Shown in pieces: positions 11,785-32,030 of a DNA stretch of 64,000 bases. This DNA is from a virus, in IMG/VR virus record IMGVR_UViG_3300032284_002843, positions 62,001-126,000 of that record, one strand, 5' to 3'. The notes under the pieces were generated by a model. The model saw nothing but the letters and a program-made list of their open reading frames with translations, did no database searches and was not told the DNA's origin. Every line of letters starts with the position of its first letter. Position 1 is the first letter of the stretch. The translations under genes and the position numbers were made by a program.

Positions 11785-11812
11785 ACTCTTTAGATAAATA
11801 CATCTGGAGAGT
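11785..11812 (+). promoter_or_regulatory. Late-type promoter in the loop of a ribosome-site hairpin
   Basis: ACTCTTTAGAT (11785-11795) pairs with ATCTGGAGAGT (11802-11812): nine Watson-Crick pairs and two G-U pairs with a 6-base loop. The right arm holds the GGAGAG ribosome site of the gene at 11816. GATAAATA (11793-11800), a late-type -10, spans the loop, so late RNA starts after the left arm. Confidence 0.65.
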
Positions 11813-11815
11813 AAG

Positions 11816-12109
11816 ATGAGTCGACCAAAACCAAAAATTTTATTGGAAAATACTGATGCTGCTACCTACAAAAGCGAACAAATTTTGGATGCCGAAGGTA
11901 TCTACGCAGTTTTTTACCAAGGTAAACCAATAAATCTACGTAGTATCAACAAGTTAGTTGACTATCCAGGTCCCAAATATAGAAAAACATCATTTAGCAA
12001 TCCAGGACATGCACATAATCTTGCTGAAAAGCTGAACACTATGTTTAAAACTGATCAGTTTGCAGTATATCTATTAACAAATGGCACGATTATTAAAGAA
12101 AATGCCTAA
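11816..12109 (+). CDS. Unknown small basic protein
   Basis: 97 residues, GGAGAG at 11806-11811. Basic N-terminus (SRPKPKILLE), then AVFYQGKPINLRSINK and a YRKTSFSNPGHAHNLAEKLN segment. This reads as a short beta-alpha domain with a surface His patch. No family recognised. It appears to be a late gene from its promoter. Confidence 0.65.
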   Translation: MSRPKPKILLENTDAATYKSEQILDAEGIYAVFYQGKPINLRSINKLVDYPGPKYRKTSFSNPGHAHNLAEKLNTMFKTDQFAVYLLTNGTIIKENA

Positions 12110-16617: not shown

Positions 16618-16675
16618 TTGACATATCACCTGCATAACAAATATGCTTGCTAGACAAGGAGATTGTATATGCAGG
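16618..16675 (+). promoter_or_regulatory. mazG-like gene promoter inside a start-codon hairpin
   Basis: -35 TTGACA (16618-16623), 18-base spacer, -10 TATGCT (16642-16647). CCTGCATA (16629-16636) is the exact complement of TATGCAGG (16668-16675), which contains the ATG at 16669. The -10 and the AAGGAG site lie in the loop. Confidence 0.7.
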
Positions 16676-17109
16676 TTGATTTGTTAAAGTATCAAGAGTT
16701 TGTAGAAGCTGTAACCAGCAAAGAAAGTAATAATCTAACAGCATTATCTGATAGAATGTTACAACTGCATCATAACTTAGTGCAAGGTAAGGATGGAAAC
16801 CTTGAAAATGGCCCAAAAATAAATGTACCATTGCTTCTAACGGCTGGATTAGGATTAGGTAGTGAAGGCGGCGAATTCCAAGAAATCATAAAGAAAGTAT
16901 TTTTCCAAGGCAAGCCATTAAACGAAGAAAACGTTTTTCATATGAAGCGCGAGCTCGGTGATATAATTTTTTATTGGATAAATGCATGCCGTGCATTAAA
17001 TCTTGATCCAAATGATGTTATTCAGGAAAATGTTACTAAACTATCGGCTAGATATCCAAAAGGTTTCAGCGTTGACCGCTCAGAAAACAGAGAAAAGGGC
17101 GATATCTAA
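16669..17109 (+). CDS. MazG-like NTP pyrophosphohydrolase
   Basis: 146 residues from ATG 16669 with AAGGAG 7 bases upstream. The metal-binding helices of the all-alpha NTP-PPase fold are visible: GSEGGEFQEIIKK (the ExxE motif) and MKRELGDIIFYW (the ExxD motif). MazG-type enzymes cleave NTPs or dNTPs to monophosphates; phage versions are thought to adjust host nucleotide pools or alarmones. Single-domain size fits phage MazG-like proteins. Confidence 0.85.
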   Translation: MQVDLLKYQEFVEAVTSKESNNLTALSDRMLQLHHNLVQGKDGNLENGPKINVPLLLTAGLGLGSEGGEFQEIIKKVFFQGKPLNEENVFHMKRELGDIIFYWINACRALNLDPNDVIQENVTKLSARYPKGFSVDRSENREKGDI

Positions 17110-17119
17110 TCTAAAATAT

Positions 17120-17152
17120 CTCCCTGTTCAACTATAAATAATGAACAGGGAG
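17120..17152 (+). promoter_or_regulatory. T4 late promoter in the loop of an 11-bp hairpin
   Basis: CTCCCTGTTCA (17120-17130) pairs perfectly with TGAACAGGGAG (17142-17152). The 11-base loop holds TATAAATA (17133-17140), the exact T4 late -10. The right arm contains the GGGAG ribosome site for the nuclease gene at 17160. This is the arrangement known for T4 I-TevI: early RNA hides the site and late RNA starts beyond the left arm. Confidence 0.8.
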
Positions 17153-17159
17153 AATTTAT

Positions 17160-17405
17160 ATGGCTAAAAAATTAACCACCGAACAATTTTTGGAAAGAAT
17201 AAAGGTACGATTTCCAGATATGTTCAATGAAAACGATTATAACGAAACCGTCTATGTAAACATAGCAACTAAAGTTTCAGTTAGATGCAAAAAACATGGT
17301 TTATTCCAAGTATGGCCCGGCGATCATATGAGTGGGATGTTTGGATGTAAAATATGTATTCAAAATAAAAGAAAAGAAACCAATATTAAAAAAATATGGC
17401 GTTGA
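17160..17405 (+). CDS. Homing-type nuclease, N-terminal part (frameshifted)
   Basis: 81 residues before TGA at 17403-17405. The region YNETVYVNIATKVSVRCKKHG and the later GC..C motif match the N-terminal zinc-binding-like domain (DUF723 type) of phage homing-associated nucleases. The reading frame breaks at a run of seven A (17388-17394). With six A the protein would continue as IKKYGVDN into the +1 frame and run to 18078. So this is one gene split by a +1 shift in a homopolymer: a mutation, sequencing error or slippage site. Its ribosome site is inside the hairpin at 17120-17152. Confidence 0.7.
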   Translation: MAKKLTTEQFLERIKVRFPDMFNENDYNETVYVNIATKVSVRCKKHGLFQVWPGDHMSGMFGCKICIQNKRKETNIKKIWR

Positions 17406-18078
17406 TAATATCTTTAAACGAACCGATATTATTAGAAATTCTATGATAAACAAACATGGTGTACCAAATCCTGGATTATTAAACGATCATGTTGATAAAA
17501 TCAAAAAGACTAATTTAGAAAAATACGGCACTATATGGGTGGCTCAAACAGAAGAAGCAAAAGCTGCAAGACGAGAAACAAATTTGAAAAAATATGGGTA
17601 TGAAGTTCCTACTAAAAATAAATTAATCTCTGCTAAAATTATACAAACAAAAATAGCAAACGGCGGCTTTACTAAATCTAATAGTAGTATGGAAGCAACT
17701 AACTTCATTAAATCGTATATACATAACAAAAAATACGATAATGATCAATGTGCATATGCCAACGAAGAGTTGGGCTTACATGAATGGGGAATTTATAAAA
17801 ACGGACGATGGGTTCTTTTTGATCTTGTTGTTTTTCAAAAAGGATATCGAGGAGACAAAGATAAAATAATTGAAATATTAGAATATCACGGACCGTTTCA
17901 TTACACATTAGAAGAGGCTAATGAATTTGGGGATAAAAAAGCATTTCCTTGGAAAACAAATAAGACAACAATAAAAGAAAGCTACCTACGCGATTTAGAA
18001 AAAGAAAAAATTGCTCAATCTCTTACAAATAATTATACGGTAATAAGAACCCGACACGGGAATATAAAAATTTCATAG
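17332..18078 (+). CDS. Homing-type nuclease, C-terminal part (frameshifted)
   Basis: Open frame continuing the gene at 17160. Meaningful similarity begins near 17395, so the GTG at 17332 is not a real start. It has repeated DNA-binding units of the form KYG(V/x)xN...(I)R.S/K(x)NxxKHG/EKYG, seen three to four times. The C-terminal Vsr/EDxHD-like nuclease part has VLFDLVVF and IIEILEYHGPFHY. Such proteins cut at unfilled sites and spread with the phage genome. It lies as a free-standing gene between the MazG-like gene and small genes, with no intron seen. Confidence 0.7.
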   Translation: MGCLDVKYVFKIKEKKPILKKYGVDNIFKRTDIIRNSMINKHGVPNPGLLNDHVDKIKKTNLEKYGTIWVAQTEEAKAARRETNLKKYGYEVPTKNKLISAKIIQTKIANGGFTKSNSSMEATNFIKSYIHNKKYDNDQCAYANEELGLHEWGIYKNGRWVLFDLVVFQKGYRGDKDKIIEILEYHGPFHYTLEEANEFGDKKAFPWKTNKTTIKESYLRDLEKEKIAQSLTNNYTVIRTRHGNIKIS

Positions 18079-18084
18079 TGCCTC

Positions 18085-18130
18085 TTGATTTTTTGAAAAA
18101 TATTTTTATATTATTCAAAAAAAAAGGAGG
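18085..18130 (+). promoter_or_regulatory. Promoter in a hairpin loop beside a ribosome site
   Basis: -35 TTGATT (18085-18090), 18-base spacer, -10 TATTAT (18109-18114). TTTTTTGAA (18089-18097) pairs with TTCAAAAAA (18114-18122), just before AGGAGG (18125-18130). The A/T-only arms make this weaker evidence than the other cases. Confidence 0.45.
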
Positions 18131-18134
18131 TACT

Positions 18135-18299
18135 ATGAATATTATTATAGATAAAACTCCTGAACAGTTACAGGAGACTTATCGTCGTATGTTAACAACA
18201 CTTGAATATGGTGGATCAGTCAATCCTAAAATTTTACATGAGATTGAGCTGCGCTTAAAAGAAACCGAACCGTTAAAACAACCTACGTTAAATAGTTGA
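18135..18299 (+). CDS. Small unknown protein
   Basis: 54 residues, strong AGGAGG 4 bases upstream of ATG 18135. A short helical protein (TPEQLQETYRRMLTTLEYGG, then a second helix). The stop overlaps the next ATG (TGATG). Not recognised. Confidence 0.65.
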   Translation: MNIIIDKTPEQLQETYRRMLTTLEYGGSVNPKILHEIELRLKETEPLKQPTLNS

Positions 18300-19021
18300 T
18301 GGTAGCAAATAATTTTATTACTTTTTATAAAAACGGTGAAGAGACTATTAAACCAAAGATCCAACATTTGTTAGATATATTTGATAGGGTCAAAGAAAGT
18401 CCTATGACAAAAACATGCGAAGCGATGGATAGACACGGGTCTAATAAAAACCATCGCCAGCATGTAATATACACACCATTTTATGATGCATTATTTGCAA
18501 ACTTAAACCCATCTGGGGTTTTAGAGTTTGGTATAGGAAGTCAAGATCCAACTATCGCATTTAGTATGAACGGACAAGCGTGTATTCCTGGTGGTAGTTT
18601 ACGAGCATGGAAAGAATTATTCCCCAATGCAGAAATATTTGGTGCAGATATTGATAAAAATTGTTTGTTTAAAGAAGACAGAATATCAACATATTACGTT
18701 AATGCATTGGAATCAATTTCTACAGACCAGTTATGGGAATACATTACAACAGATCATCCAAATATTAATATACAACTAATCATAGACGATGCATATCATA
18801 GCTTAGATGCTAATTTAACATTACTCAATCATAGTATAGATCATTTGGCCAACAACGGATGGTATGTAATTGAAGATATTAACAGAGATAAACCTGCACA
18901 TATCAATGGAATTAAAGAATGGTTGCAAAATCATAATTATGATGCCGTAGTTTTAGATATTCCAAACAACACCAATACTAGCTGTTGCTGCATGGCTGTT
19001 ATACACAAAACAAACTGTTGA
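18299..19021 (+). CDS. Class I SAM-dependent methyltransferase-like protein
   Basis: 240 residues from ATG 18299, coupled by TGATG. The SAM-binding motif I is VLEFGIGSQDP (about 66-76), followed by an acidic second motif AEIFGADIDKN and LIIDDAYHS, then NNGWYVIEDI. The layout, with a Gly-Gly-Ser-Leu-Arg-Ala-Trp insertion after motif I, resembles sugar or antibiotic O-methyltransferases of the CmcI/rhamnosyl type. Target unknown; a glycan or modified base is possible. The C-terminus has three adjacent cysteines. Confidence 0.7.
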   Translation: MVANNFITFYKNGEETIKPKIQHLLDIFDRVKESPMTKTCEAMDRHGSNKNHRQHVIYTPFYDALFANLNPSGVLEFGIGSQDPTIAFSMNGQACIPGGSLRAWKELFPNAEIFGADIDKNCLFKEDRISTYYVNALESISTDQLWEYITTDHPNINIQLIIDDAYHSLDANLTLLNHSIDHLANNGWYVIEDINRDKPAHINGIKEWLQNHNYDAVVLDIPNNTNTSCCCMAVIHKTNC

Positions 19022-30788: not shown

Positions 30789-31213
30789 TAAAAAGTACCC
30801 CAATGATCTTTAAACATTCTTGCATAAGTTGTTGCATTGAGATCTAAAATCTTTGAATTATAGTATGTTGGAGGCTGAAATAACTTGTTTGTATCTTCAA
30901 ATCTACCTTCTTTAATAGTATCCATCCATATTAAAAAGCAAGGACCAAATGCTGCTCTAGTTTCTTCTGTTGGACAAACAAAATCTGCAATGGCTATATG
31001 TCCTGCTGCGTTTACTGTATCACACAACCATCCCATACGTCTTGCCTGTTCAATTCTATCGTCAGTTGAAAAGCTAAGATCCTTATTAATATTTGATCTT
31101 ACAGCGTCAGCATTCCAATGAACTGCTCCTGTAAGTTTAGCTAATTCAGTCGCTAATGTAGTTTTACCACTACCTGGCAAACCCATTATTAATATCTTTA
31201 ATGGCTTATTCAT
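30788..31213 (-). CDS. P-loop kinase, adenylylsulfate-kinase-like
   Basis: 141 residues. Walker A GLPGSGKTT (11-19). WNADAVRSN, FSTDDRIEQARRMG and the GHIAIADFVCPTEETR segment match the APS kinase layout (Asp-x-Val-Arg then Phe-Ser-x-x-Asp-Arg). APS itself may not be the substrate. It is translated together with the nucleotidyltransferase downstream, so the pair probably act in one small pathway such as cofactor or sugar-nucleotide synthesis. Preceded by a GIY-YIG gene overlapping by 4 bases. Confidence 0.78.
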   Translation of the reverse strand: MNKPLKILIMGLPGSGKTTLATELAKLTGAVHWNADAVRSNINKDLSFSTDDRIEQARRMGWLCDTVNAAGHIAIADFVCPTEETRAAFGPCFLIWMDTIKEGRFEDTNKLFQPPTYYNSKILDLNATTYARMFKDHWGTF

Positions 31214-31992
31214 TTAATAGATTCCAATCGTTTCCAGTTATTCACAGTTTTTCCTTTACAAAACCAAACTAATACAGATTTTGGATTTAATCCTTGGTCT
31301 TTTGCCCATTTTGTAATATTCTTAACTTTAATTATTTCTTTAGTGATTACATTTTCTAAAATATGAACACGACTATTTTTATCTGCTATTATCATTCTAG
31401 ATTCTGGTTTTGTGTTCATACCATTTTTATCACCTATGTTATTACCCTTAGATTTAAAAGTTTTAACACGTTTTTTTATTGTTGCATTTGACACCTGTTT
31501 ACCAGGATTTGAATGTATCATTCTTTCTGATCTTCTTTTACGCTCATTATCAGATAAATTTAGTTTTTTACCTTTACCTGATTCACTTATCATAGATTTT
31601 ATTTTATCAGCTTTGTCATATCCATATATTTCTTCATATGTTTTACCTTTTTGAAATGAAGTCCATTTTTGTCTAGATTTTTTATTTTTCTTTCTATACT
31701 TGGCTGTCCAATGTTTGCTATTGTTTCCACCTGATTCTTCTTCCATAGATAAATTTGCCCATTCATTGCTATCAACGACATTCCATAATTTACTAAAATA
31801 TACTCCCCATTTTTTTATTTCCTCATTTGAAGAACATTCTTTTAATATAAAAGTATCAACATTATTTCCATGCTTCCTAATATGTTTTAACCAATATTTT
31901 CCAGAACCTTTATATTTAAATGGATCTTTACTTGTCTTTCCTAAATATTTGAGATTTGTTAGCTTATGAATTTTTACATATAGATAAATCAT
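31210..31992 (-). CDS. GIY-YIG homing endonuclease
   Basis: 260 residues from ATG 31992, with AAGG 6 bases upstream. The GIY-YIG motif appears as IYLYVKI then KYLGKTSKDPFKYKGSG (within the first 40 residues). The middle is Lys-rich (KYRKKNKKSRQKW) with DNA-binding NUMOD-like helices, and the C-terminal KNITKWAKDQGLNPKSV is a NUMOD1-type helix-turn-helix. Similar to the T4 Seg family. A free-standing gene inserted between thyX and the kinase. Codons are very AT-rich, as expected for a mobile gene. Confidence 0.88.
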   Translation of the reverse strand: MIYLYVKIHKLTNLKYLGKTSKDPFKYKGSGKYWLKHIRKHGNNVDTFILKECSSNEEIKKWGVYFSKLWNVVDSNEWANLSMEEESGGNNSKHWTAKYRKKNKKSRQKWTSFQKGKTYEEIYGYDKADKIKSMISESGKGKKLNLSDNERKRRSERMIHSNPGKQVSNATIKKRVKTFKSKGNNIGDKNGMNTKPESRMIIADKNSRVHILENVITKEIIKVKNITKWAKDQGLNPKSVLVWFCKGKTVNNWKRLESIK

Positions 31993-31997
31993 TTTCA

Positions 31998-32030
31998 ACC
32001 TTGCATTGTACTAAAACTATTTAGTAAGGT
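31998..32030 (-). promoter_or_regulatory. Nested hairpin around a late-type box for the GIY-YIG gene
   Basis: On the minus strand ACCTT pairs with AAGGT, the latter being the ribosome site. Between them ACTAAA/TTTAGT forms an inner 6-bp stem holding CTAAATAG, a late-like -10. Short arms, so the call is moderate. Confidence 0.45.

What the first reader, a model, noticed from the sequence alone, without database searches (positions are those of the whole stretch)
17120..17152. I-TevI-like late control of a homing-type nuclease
An exact TATAAATA sits in the loop of a perfect 11-bp hairpin that hides the GGGAG site of the nuclease gene. T4 I-TevI is controlled in the same way. The two nucleases look unrelated, so the arrangement may have arisen twice or travelled with the gene.
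Basis: partly seen in the sequence, partly recalled or inferred. Interest (0 to 1): 0.75.

Follow-up and report, generated by a model that had tools for sequence, protein, structure and literature searches.

The report
Late-only switch on phage homing nuclease
A mobile nuclease gene inserted in a T4-type phage carries a late promoter inside an RNA hairpin that hides its ribosome site on long transcripts, so it is probably translated only late in infection; this is the control known from T4 I-TevI, and other genes of this phage show it too.

Summary
A perfect 12-bp hairpin (17119-17153, one pair longer than stated) has TATAAATA in its 11-nt loop and GGGAG in its 3' arm, 7 nt before ATG 17160. 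The phage encodes a T4-type late sigma factor (gp55), and [ACG]TAAATA is its late-promoter motif: ATAAATA lies just upstream of a gene start in 20 of 29 occurrences, against at most 5% for most one-base variants. Opening the start region costs 15.5 kcal/mol on a long transcript and 2.4 on a late one; T4 I-TevI, I-TevII, e, 49 and segB give similar numbers. A syntenic relative has the empty site: hairpin and gene lie together in a 971-bp insert. The nuclease is unrelated in sequence to I-TevI, and its frame is broken at a run of seven A. The arrangement is not special to this nuclease: at least four other genes of the phage have a promoter inside a start-site hairpin, and one 97-aa family keeps it across dozens of phages. 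Function is inferred; no RNA data exist. Known mechanism, new member, with an unexpectedly wide distribution.

The parts
17119..17130 (+). 5' arm of the hairpin, TCTCCCTGTTCA
   Evidence: absent from a transcript starting at the predicted late start site
17133..17140 (+). TATAAATA, T4-type late promoter, in the hairpin loop (17131-17141); predicted start of transcription about 17146
   Evidence: gp55 homologue in the same record. The start site is inferred from T4 late-promoter geometry (own knowledge)
17142..17153 (+). 3' arm of the hairpin, TGAACAGGGAGA, holding the ribosome site GGGAG (17148-17152)
17160..17405 (+). N-terminal frame of the homing-type nuclease (81 aa)
   Evidence: read-through protein matches DUF7487 and homing endonuclease PHROGs
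17332..18078 (+). rest of the nuclease in the +1 frame (248-aa ORF; homologous part starts about 17389); frame break at the A7 run about 17388-17394
17110..18080 (+). inserted block (hairpin plus nuclease); a syntenic relative has 11 nt here
16669..17109 (+). MazG-like pyrophosphohydrolase upstream, with a sigma70-like promoter; source of the presumed read-through transcript
18080..18137 (+). start-site hairpin with a sigma70-like promoter before the 54-aa gene just downstream of the insert; pairing kept in the relative, with compensatory changes read by eye
11785..11812 (+). second late-promoter hairpin (ACTCTTTAGAT-AAATAC-ATCTGGAGAGT) before the 97-aa gene at 11816

Best explanation
This is a late-only expression switch on a free-standing homing-type nuclease gene inserted between a mazG gene and a small gene of a T4-type phage. 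Transcripts that read through from upstream carry both hairpin arms, so the ribosome site is paired and the gene is not translated. When the phage late sigma factor directs transcription from TATAAATA in the loop, the mRNA starts inside the 3' arm, lacks the 5' arm, and is translated. Shown from sequence: promoter motif, hairpin, gp55 homologue, insertion with the hairpin inside it. Inferred: the exact start site, that read-through transcripts exist, and the timing. The gene's frame is broken, so the protein may be non-functional here unless slippage restores it.
For: Hairpin and motif. Late promoter motif: ATAAATA ends 3-35 nt before a gene start in 20 of 29 cases; GTAAATA 6/11 and CTAAATA 11/27 are also used, while other one-base variants are mostly at 5% or below (TTAAATA 16%). 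gp55: phrog_12791 E 3e-86, phrog_234 E 2e-22. Opening energy of the start region: long 15.5, late 2.4 kcal/mol; of 19 late promoters only three stand out. T4 controls on the same measure, long/late: I-TevI 13.9/1.4, I-TevII 13.2/0.4, e 15.2/3.8, 49 15.8/2.9, segB 17.1/5.7. Empty site in a relative at 71-80% DNA identity, also absent in L096. The same design recurs in the genome (Fisher p 2e-4 to 1e-3) and is kept in a gene family. Literature: PMC2988022, PMC3014915.
Against: No RNA or protein data. The nuclease frame is broken at A7, so the switch may control a decaying gene. The T4 soc leader, a published case, was not detected by the energy measure, so it is imperfect. The distant nuclease homologues lack the hairpin. 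No close homologue exists to show conservation of this particular hairpin.
Confidence: 0.82

Rival explanations
1. The hairpin is an intrinsic transcription terminator of the mazG operon and TATAAATA is incidental.
For: It follows the mazG stop codon directly and is stable.
Against: No U tract follows (GGGAGAATTTATATG), the loop is 11 nt, and the terminator scan does not list it. It is absent from the relative that has the same mazG gene.
Confidence: 0.05
2. The palindrome is mainly a DNA operator over the late promoter, bound by the nuclease or another regulator, as I-TevI binds its own late promoter region.
For: I-TevI represses itself at an operator overlapping its late promoter (PMC2988022); a 12-bp palindrome flanking a promoter would suit a dimer.
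Against: Hairpins of other genes in this phage have unrelated sequences but the same relation to ribosome site and start codon, which fits RNA pairing rather than a shared operator. It could act in addition.
Confidence: 0.08
3. The control is a relic: the nuclease is a pseudogene and the hairpin no longer has a useful effect.
For: Frame broken at A7.
Against: The hairpin is still perfect over 12 bp, and the second frame is open for 248 aa. An assembly error or slippage at A7 is possible. This rival concerns the protein more than the switch and is compatible with the switch working as described.
Confidence: 0.3

Closest known systems
T4 I-TevI (also I-TevII, I-TevIII, segB; Aeh1 mobE): late promoter within a hairpin that hides the ribosome site
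   Same: Late promoter in or next to the 5' arm, ribosome site in the 3' arm, gene on the same strand as surrounding non-late genes, opening energies nearly identical (PMC2988022).
   Different: Nuclease of another family (DUF7487/KYG-repeat type), free-standing between mazG and a small gene, in a distant T4-type phage; the frame is broken.
T4 lysozyme gene e, soc and gene 49
   Same: Late genes on long early transcripts, silenced by a start-site hairpin and freed by late promoters (PMC3014915; e and 49 reproduced).
   Different: Not mobile elements. Shows that the mechanism is not nuclease-specific.
KYG-repeat homing endonucleases (phrog_3339, phrog_12131; Pfam DUF7487)
   Same: Repeats of the KYG(V/Y)E type, zinc-binding-like N-terminus.
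   Different: The C-terminal catalytic part could not be matched to their Vsr-like domain by profile comparison, and the homologues found lack the hairpin.

Membership tests
I-TevI-type control (late promoter inside a ribosome-site hairpin) | T4-type late promoter immediately upstream | tested here: met
I-TevI-type control (late promoter inside a ribosome-site hairpin) | phage encodes the late sigma factor gp55 | tested here: met
   gp33 and gp45 were not searched
I-TevI-type control (late promoter inside a ribosome-site hairpin) | hairpin sequesters the ribosome site on long transcripts but not on late ones (in silico) | tested here: met
   calibrated on T4 genes
I-TevI-type control (late promoter inside a ribosome-site hairpin) | gene lies on a longer early or middle transcript | tested here: inconclusive
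   same-strand block of metabolic genes, sigma70-like promoter before mazG, no terminator found between; no RNA data
I-TevI-type control (late promoter inside a ribosome-site hairpin) | translated only late in infection | not testable with these tools
   needs infection experiments; host unknown
GIY-YIG homing endonucleases (I-TevI itself) | GIY-YIG domain or sequence similarity to I-TevI | tested here: not met
   I-TevI matches phrog_314, this protein does not
KYG-repeat (DUF7487) homing endonucleases | Pfam/PHROG match above cut-off | tested here: met
   DUF7487 50.3 bits, cut-off 27; phrog_3339 E 4e-12
KYG-repeat (DUF7487) homing endonucleases | recognisable nuclease fold | tested here: inconclusive
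   models of low confidence; no profile match of the C-terminus
KYG-repeat (DUF7487) homing endonucleases | intact reading frame | tested here: not met
   frame break at A7
Intrinsic terminator | G+C-rich stem followed by a U tract | tested here: not met

The most novel reading that the evidence does not exclude
In this phage lineage, placing a gene's own promoter inside the hairpin that hides its start site is a general insulation device, used with both late and host-type (sigma70-like) promoters, so that many genes are translated only from their own promoter and not from read-through RNA. Homing elements bring or evolve such a device when they insert.
Probability: 0.4. Interest if true: 0.7.

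Novelty: new member of a known kind. Interest (0 to 1): 0.5.

Why it matters
It extends the I-TevI/e type of control from T4 and its near relatives to an uncultured T4-type phage and to a different nuclease family, with a matched empty site showing that switch and gene lie in one inserted block. It also suggests that promoter-inside-hairpin control is much commoner than the handful of T4 examples: in one 97-aa gene family, 51 of 55 non-redundant leaders have the late promoter and 29 of those 51 show significant occlusion although their sequences differ widely. A cultured phage with that gene, Agrobacterium phage Atu_ph07, shows the pattern and would allow a test; Pseudomonas phage PA5oct shows it more weakly.

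Tried and rejected
Close homologues of the nuclease: only distant relatives (27-46% identity over parts) in viral contigs, partial matches in named phages, none in bacterial genomes; the family alignment was too divergent to scan with. Structure predictions were of low confidence, so no fold search was run. A profile comparison of the C-terminus with Vsr-like domains gave no match. Rfam: nothing in the window. Relatives of the other gene with a TATAAATA hairpin (L010:1-351) were partial only. A first search for syntenic relatives with mazG failed because that gene is mobile. A match in L211 to the nuclease was spurious: the open frame there is another protein. Terminator reading rejected.

Full report
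Setting. The window is positions 62001-126000 of a 136,279-base virus record. The phage is T4-type: it encodes a gp43-like DNA polymerase, gp46/47-like nuclease subunits, a baseplate wedge protein and a gp55-like late sigma factor (T4 gp55 itself matches with 28% identity). It also has an RpoD-like sigma factor of 484 aa. The region with the finding is a same-strand block of replication and metabolic genes; a large block on the other strand holds tail and other structural genes.

The observation. The hairpin is real and slightly better than reported: 12 perfect pairs, 17119-17130 with 17142-17153, loop of 11 nt containing TATAAATA. The fold is far more stable than shuffles (z -6.1). GGGAG is inside the 3' arm, 7 nt before the ATG.

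Is TATAAATA a late promoter? In the whole record ATAAATA occurs 29 times and 20 of these end 3-35 nt before a predicted gene start. Other 7-mers of the same composition reach 2-18%, apart from TAAATAA at 45%, which is the overlapping shift. GTAAATA (6/11) and CTAAATA (11/27) behave likewise; other single-base variants reach at most 5%, except TTAAATA at 16%. With gp55 present this identifies the T4-type late promoter of this phage. That gp55 reads this motif here is inference from T4.

Does the hairpin matter for translation? I computed the free energy needed to open the ribosome site and start codon in a transcript that includes the upstream region and in one that starts six bases after the promoter motif. 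For the nuclease the values are 15.5 and 2.4 kcal/mol. Among 19 distinct late promoters of the record only three give large values: the nuclease, the 97-aa gene at 11816, and a gene at the record's end, L010:351. The same measure on T4 genes with published control gives I-TevI 13.9/1.4, I-TevII 13.2/0.4, e 15.2/3.8, 49 15.8/2.9 and segB 17.1/5.7; soc is not detected. The published mechanism is that late transcripts start inside the structure and lack its 5' part (PMC2988022; PMC3014915).

The nuclease and its insertion. Read through its frame break, the protein matches Pfam DUF7487 and homing endonuclease PHROGs, with KYG-type repeats. It has no similarity to I-TevI. Its catalytic domain could not be confirmed. 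The gene is split: the first 81 codons are in one frame and the rest in the +1 frame, meeting at seven A. This may be a decayed gene, an assembly error or slippage; the data do not decide. A syntenic relative (38-kb contig, loci L226/L227, 71-80% DNA identity in aligned pieces) has the mazG gene followed by 11 nt and then the next small gene. In the window 971 bp stand there instead, and the hairpin is at the left end of that block. A second relative, L096, also lacks hairpin and nuclease between mazG and the next shared gene. So hairpin and gene are one insertion unit here. Whether they came together or the hairpin evolved after insertion cannot be told.

Not nuclease-specific. A HNH/zinc-like protein of uncertain function at L011:12934-13782 has CCTCCTAG-GTAAATAT-CTAGGAGG before its ATG. 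The 97-aa gene at 11816 belongs to a large family: 51 of 55 non-redundant leaders contain [ACG]TAAATA, the start region is more occluded in long transcripts than in shuffles (mean z 1.9, 29 of 51 above 2), and 37 of 51 lose at least 6 kcal/mol in the late transcript, while the sequences differ widely. In the whole record, starts that are strongly occluded on long transcripts have a promoter of their own that cuts off the 5' arm far more often than other starts: 10 of 17 against 24 of 155, p = 2e-4. Several of these are sigma70-like promoters (MazG at 16669, 18135, 29464, 27036); that part rests on loose consensus matches, and one search shows that sigma70-like matches are no more frequent here than in shuffles. 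For the genes at 18135 and 15483 the relative keeps the hairpin with a changed sequence, which argues for selection on pairing; the compensatory changes were read by eye on two sequences.

Verdict. What is new is the phage lineage, the nuclease family, the matched empty site, and the evidence that the design is widespread in these phages.

Noticed in passing
window and related loci, e.g. G000:C1:30376, 40553, 50873; window 23452 and 55295: The late motif often ends only 4-8 nt before the ATG (own record 8 of 20; relatives 17 of 93, with a sharp peak at 4-5 nt), which would place the transcript start at the start codon: predicted leaderless late mRNAs.
   Followed up: partly
window 11816-12109: 97-aa protein (MSRPKPK...) with no family match except a sub-threshold Pfam hit; hundreds of homologues in viral contigs and 15 named phage records including PA5oct and Atu_ph07; late promoter kept upstream.
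   Followed up: partly
L011:10925-12379 (minus): RpoD-like sigma factor of 484 aa with regions 1.2, 2, 3 and 4 in a phage that also has gp55.
   Followed up: no
window 17388-17394: Run of seven A where the nuclease frame shifts by +1; pseudogene, assembly error or slippage undecided.
   Followed up: no
window 18296-19021: Methyltransferase-like gene absent from the syntenic relative: a second difference close to the nuclease insertion.
   Followed up: no
window 16669, 18135, 27036, 29464: Start-site hairpins with sigma70-like promoters placed so that their transcripts lack the 5' arm.
   Followed up: partly
window 31210-31998 (minus): phrog_314 (I-TevI family) homing endonuclease-like gene, about 92% identical in the syntenic relative at the same place.
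   Followed up: no
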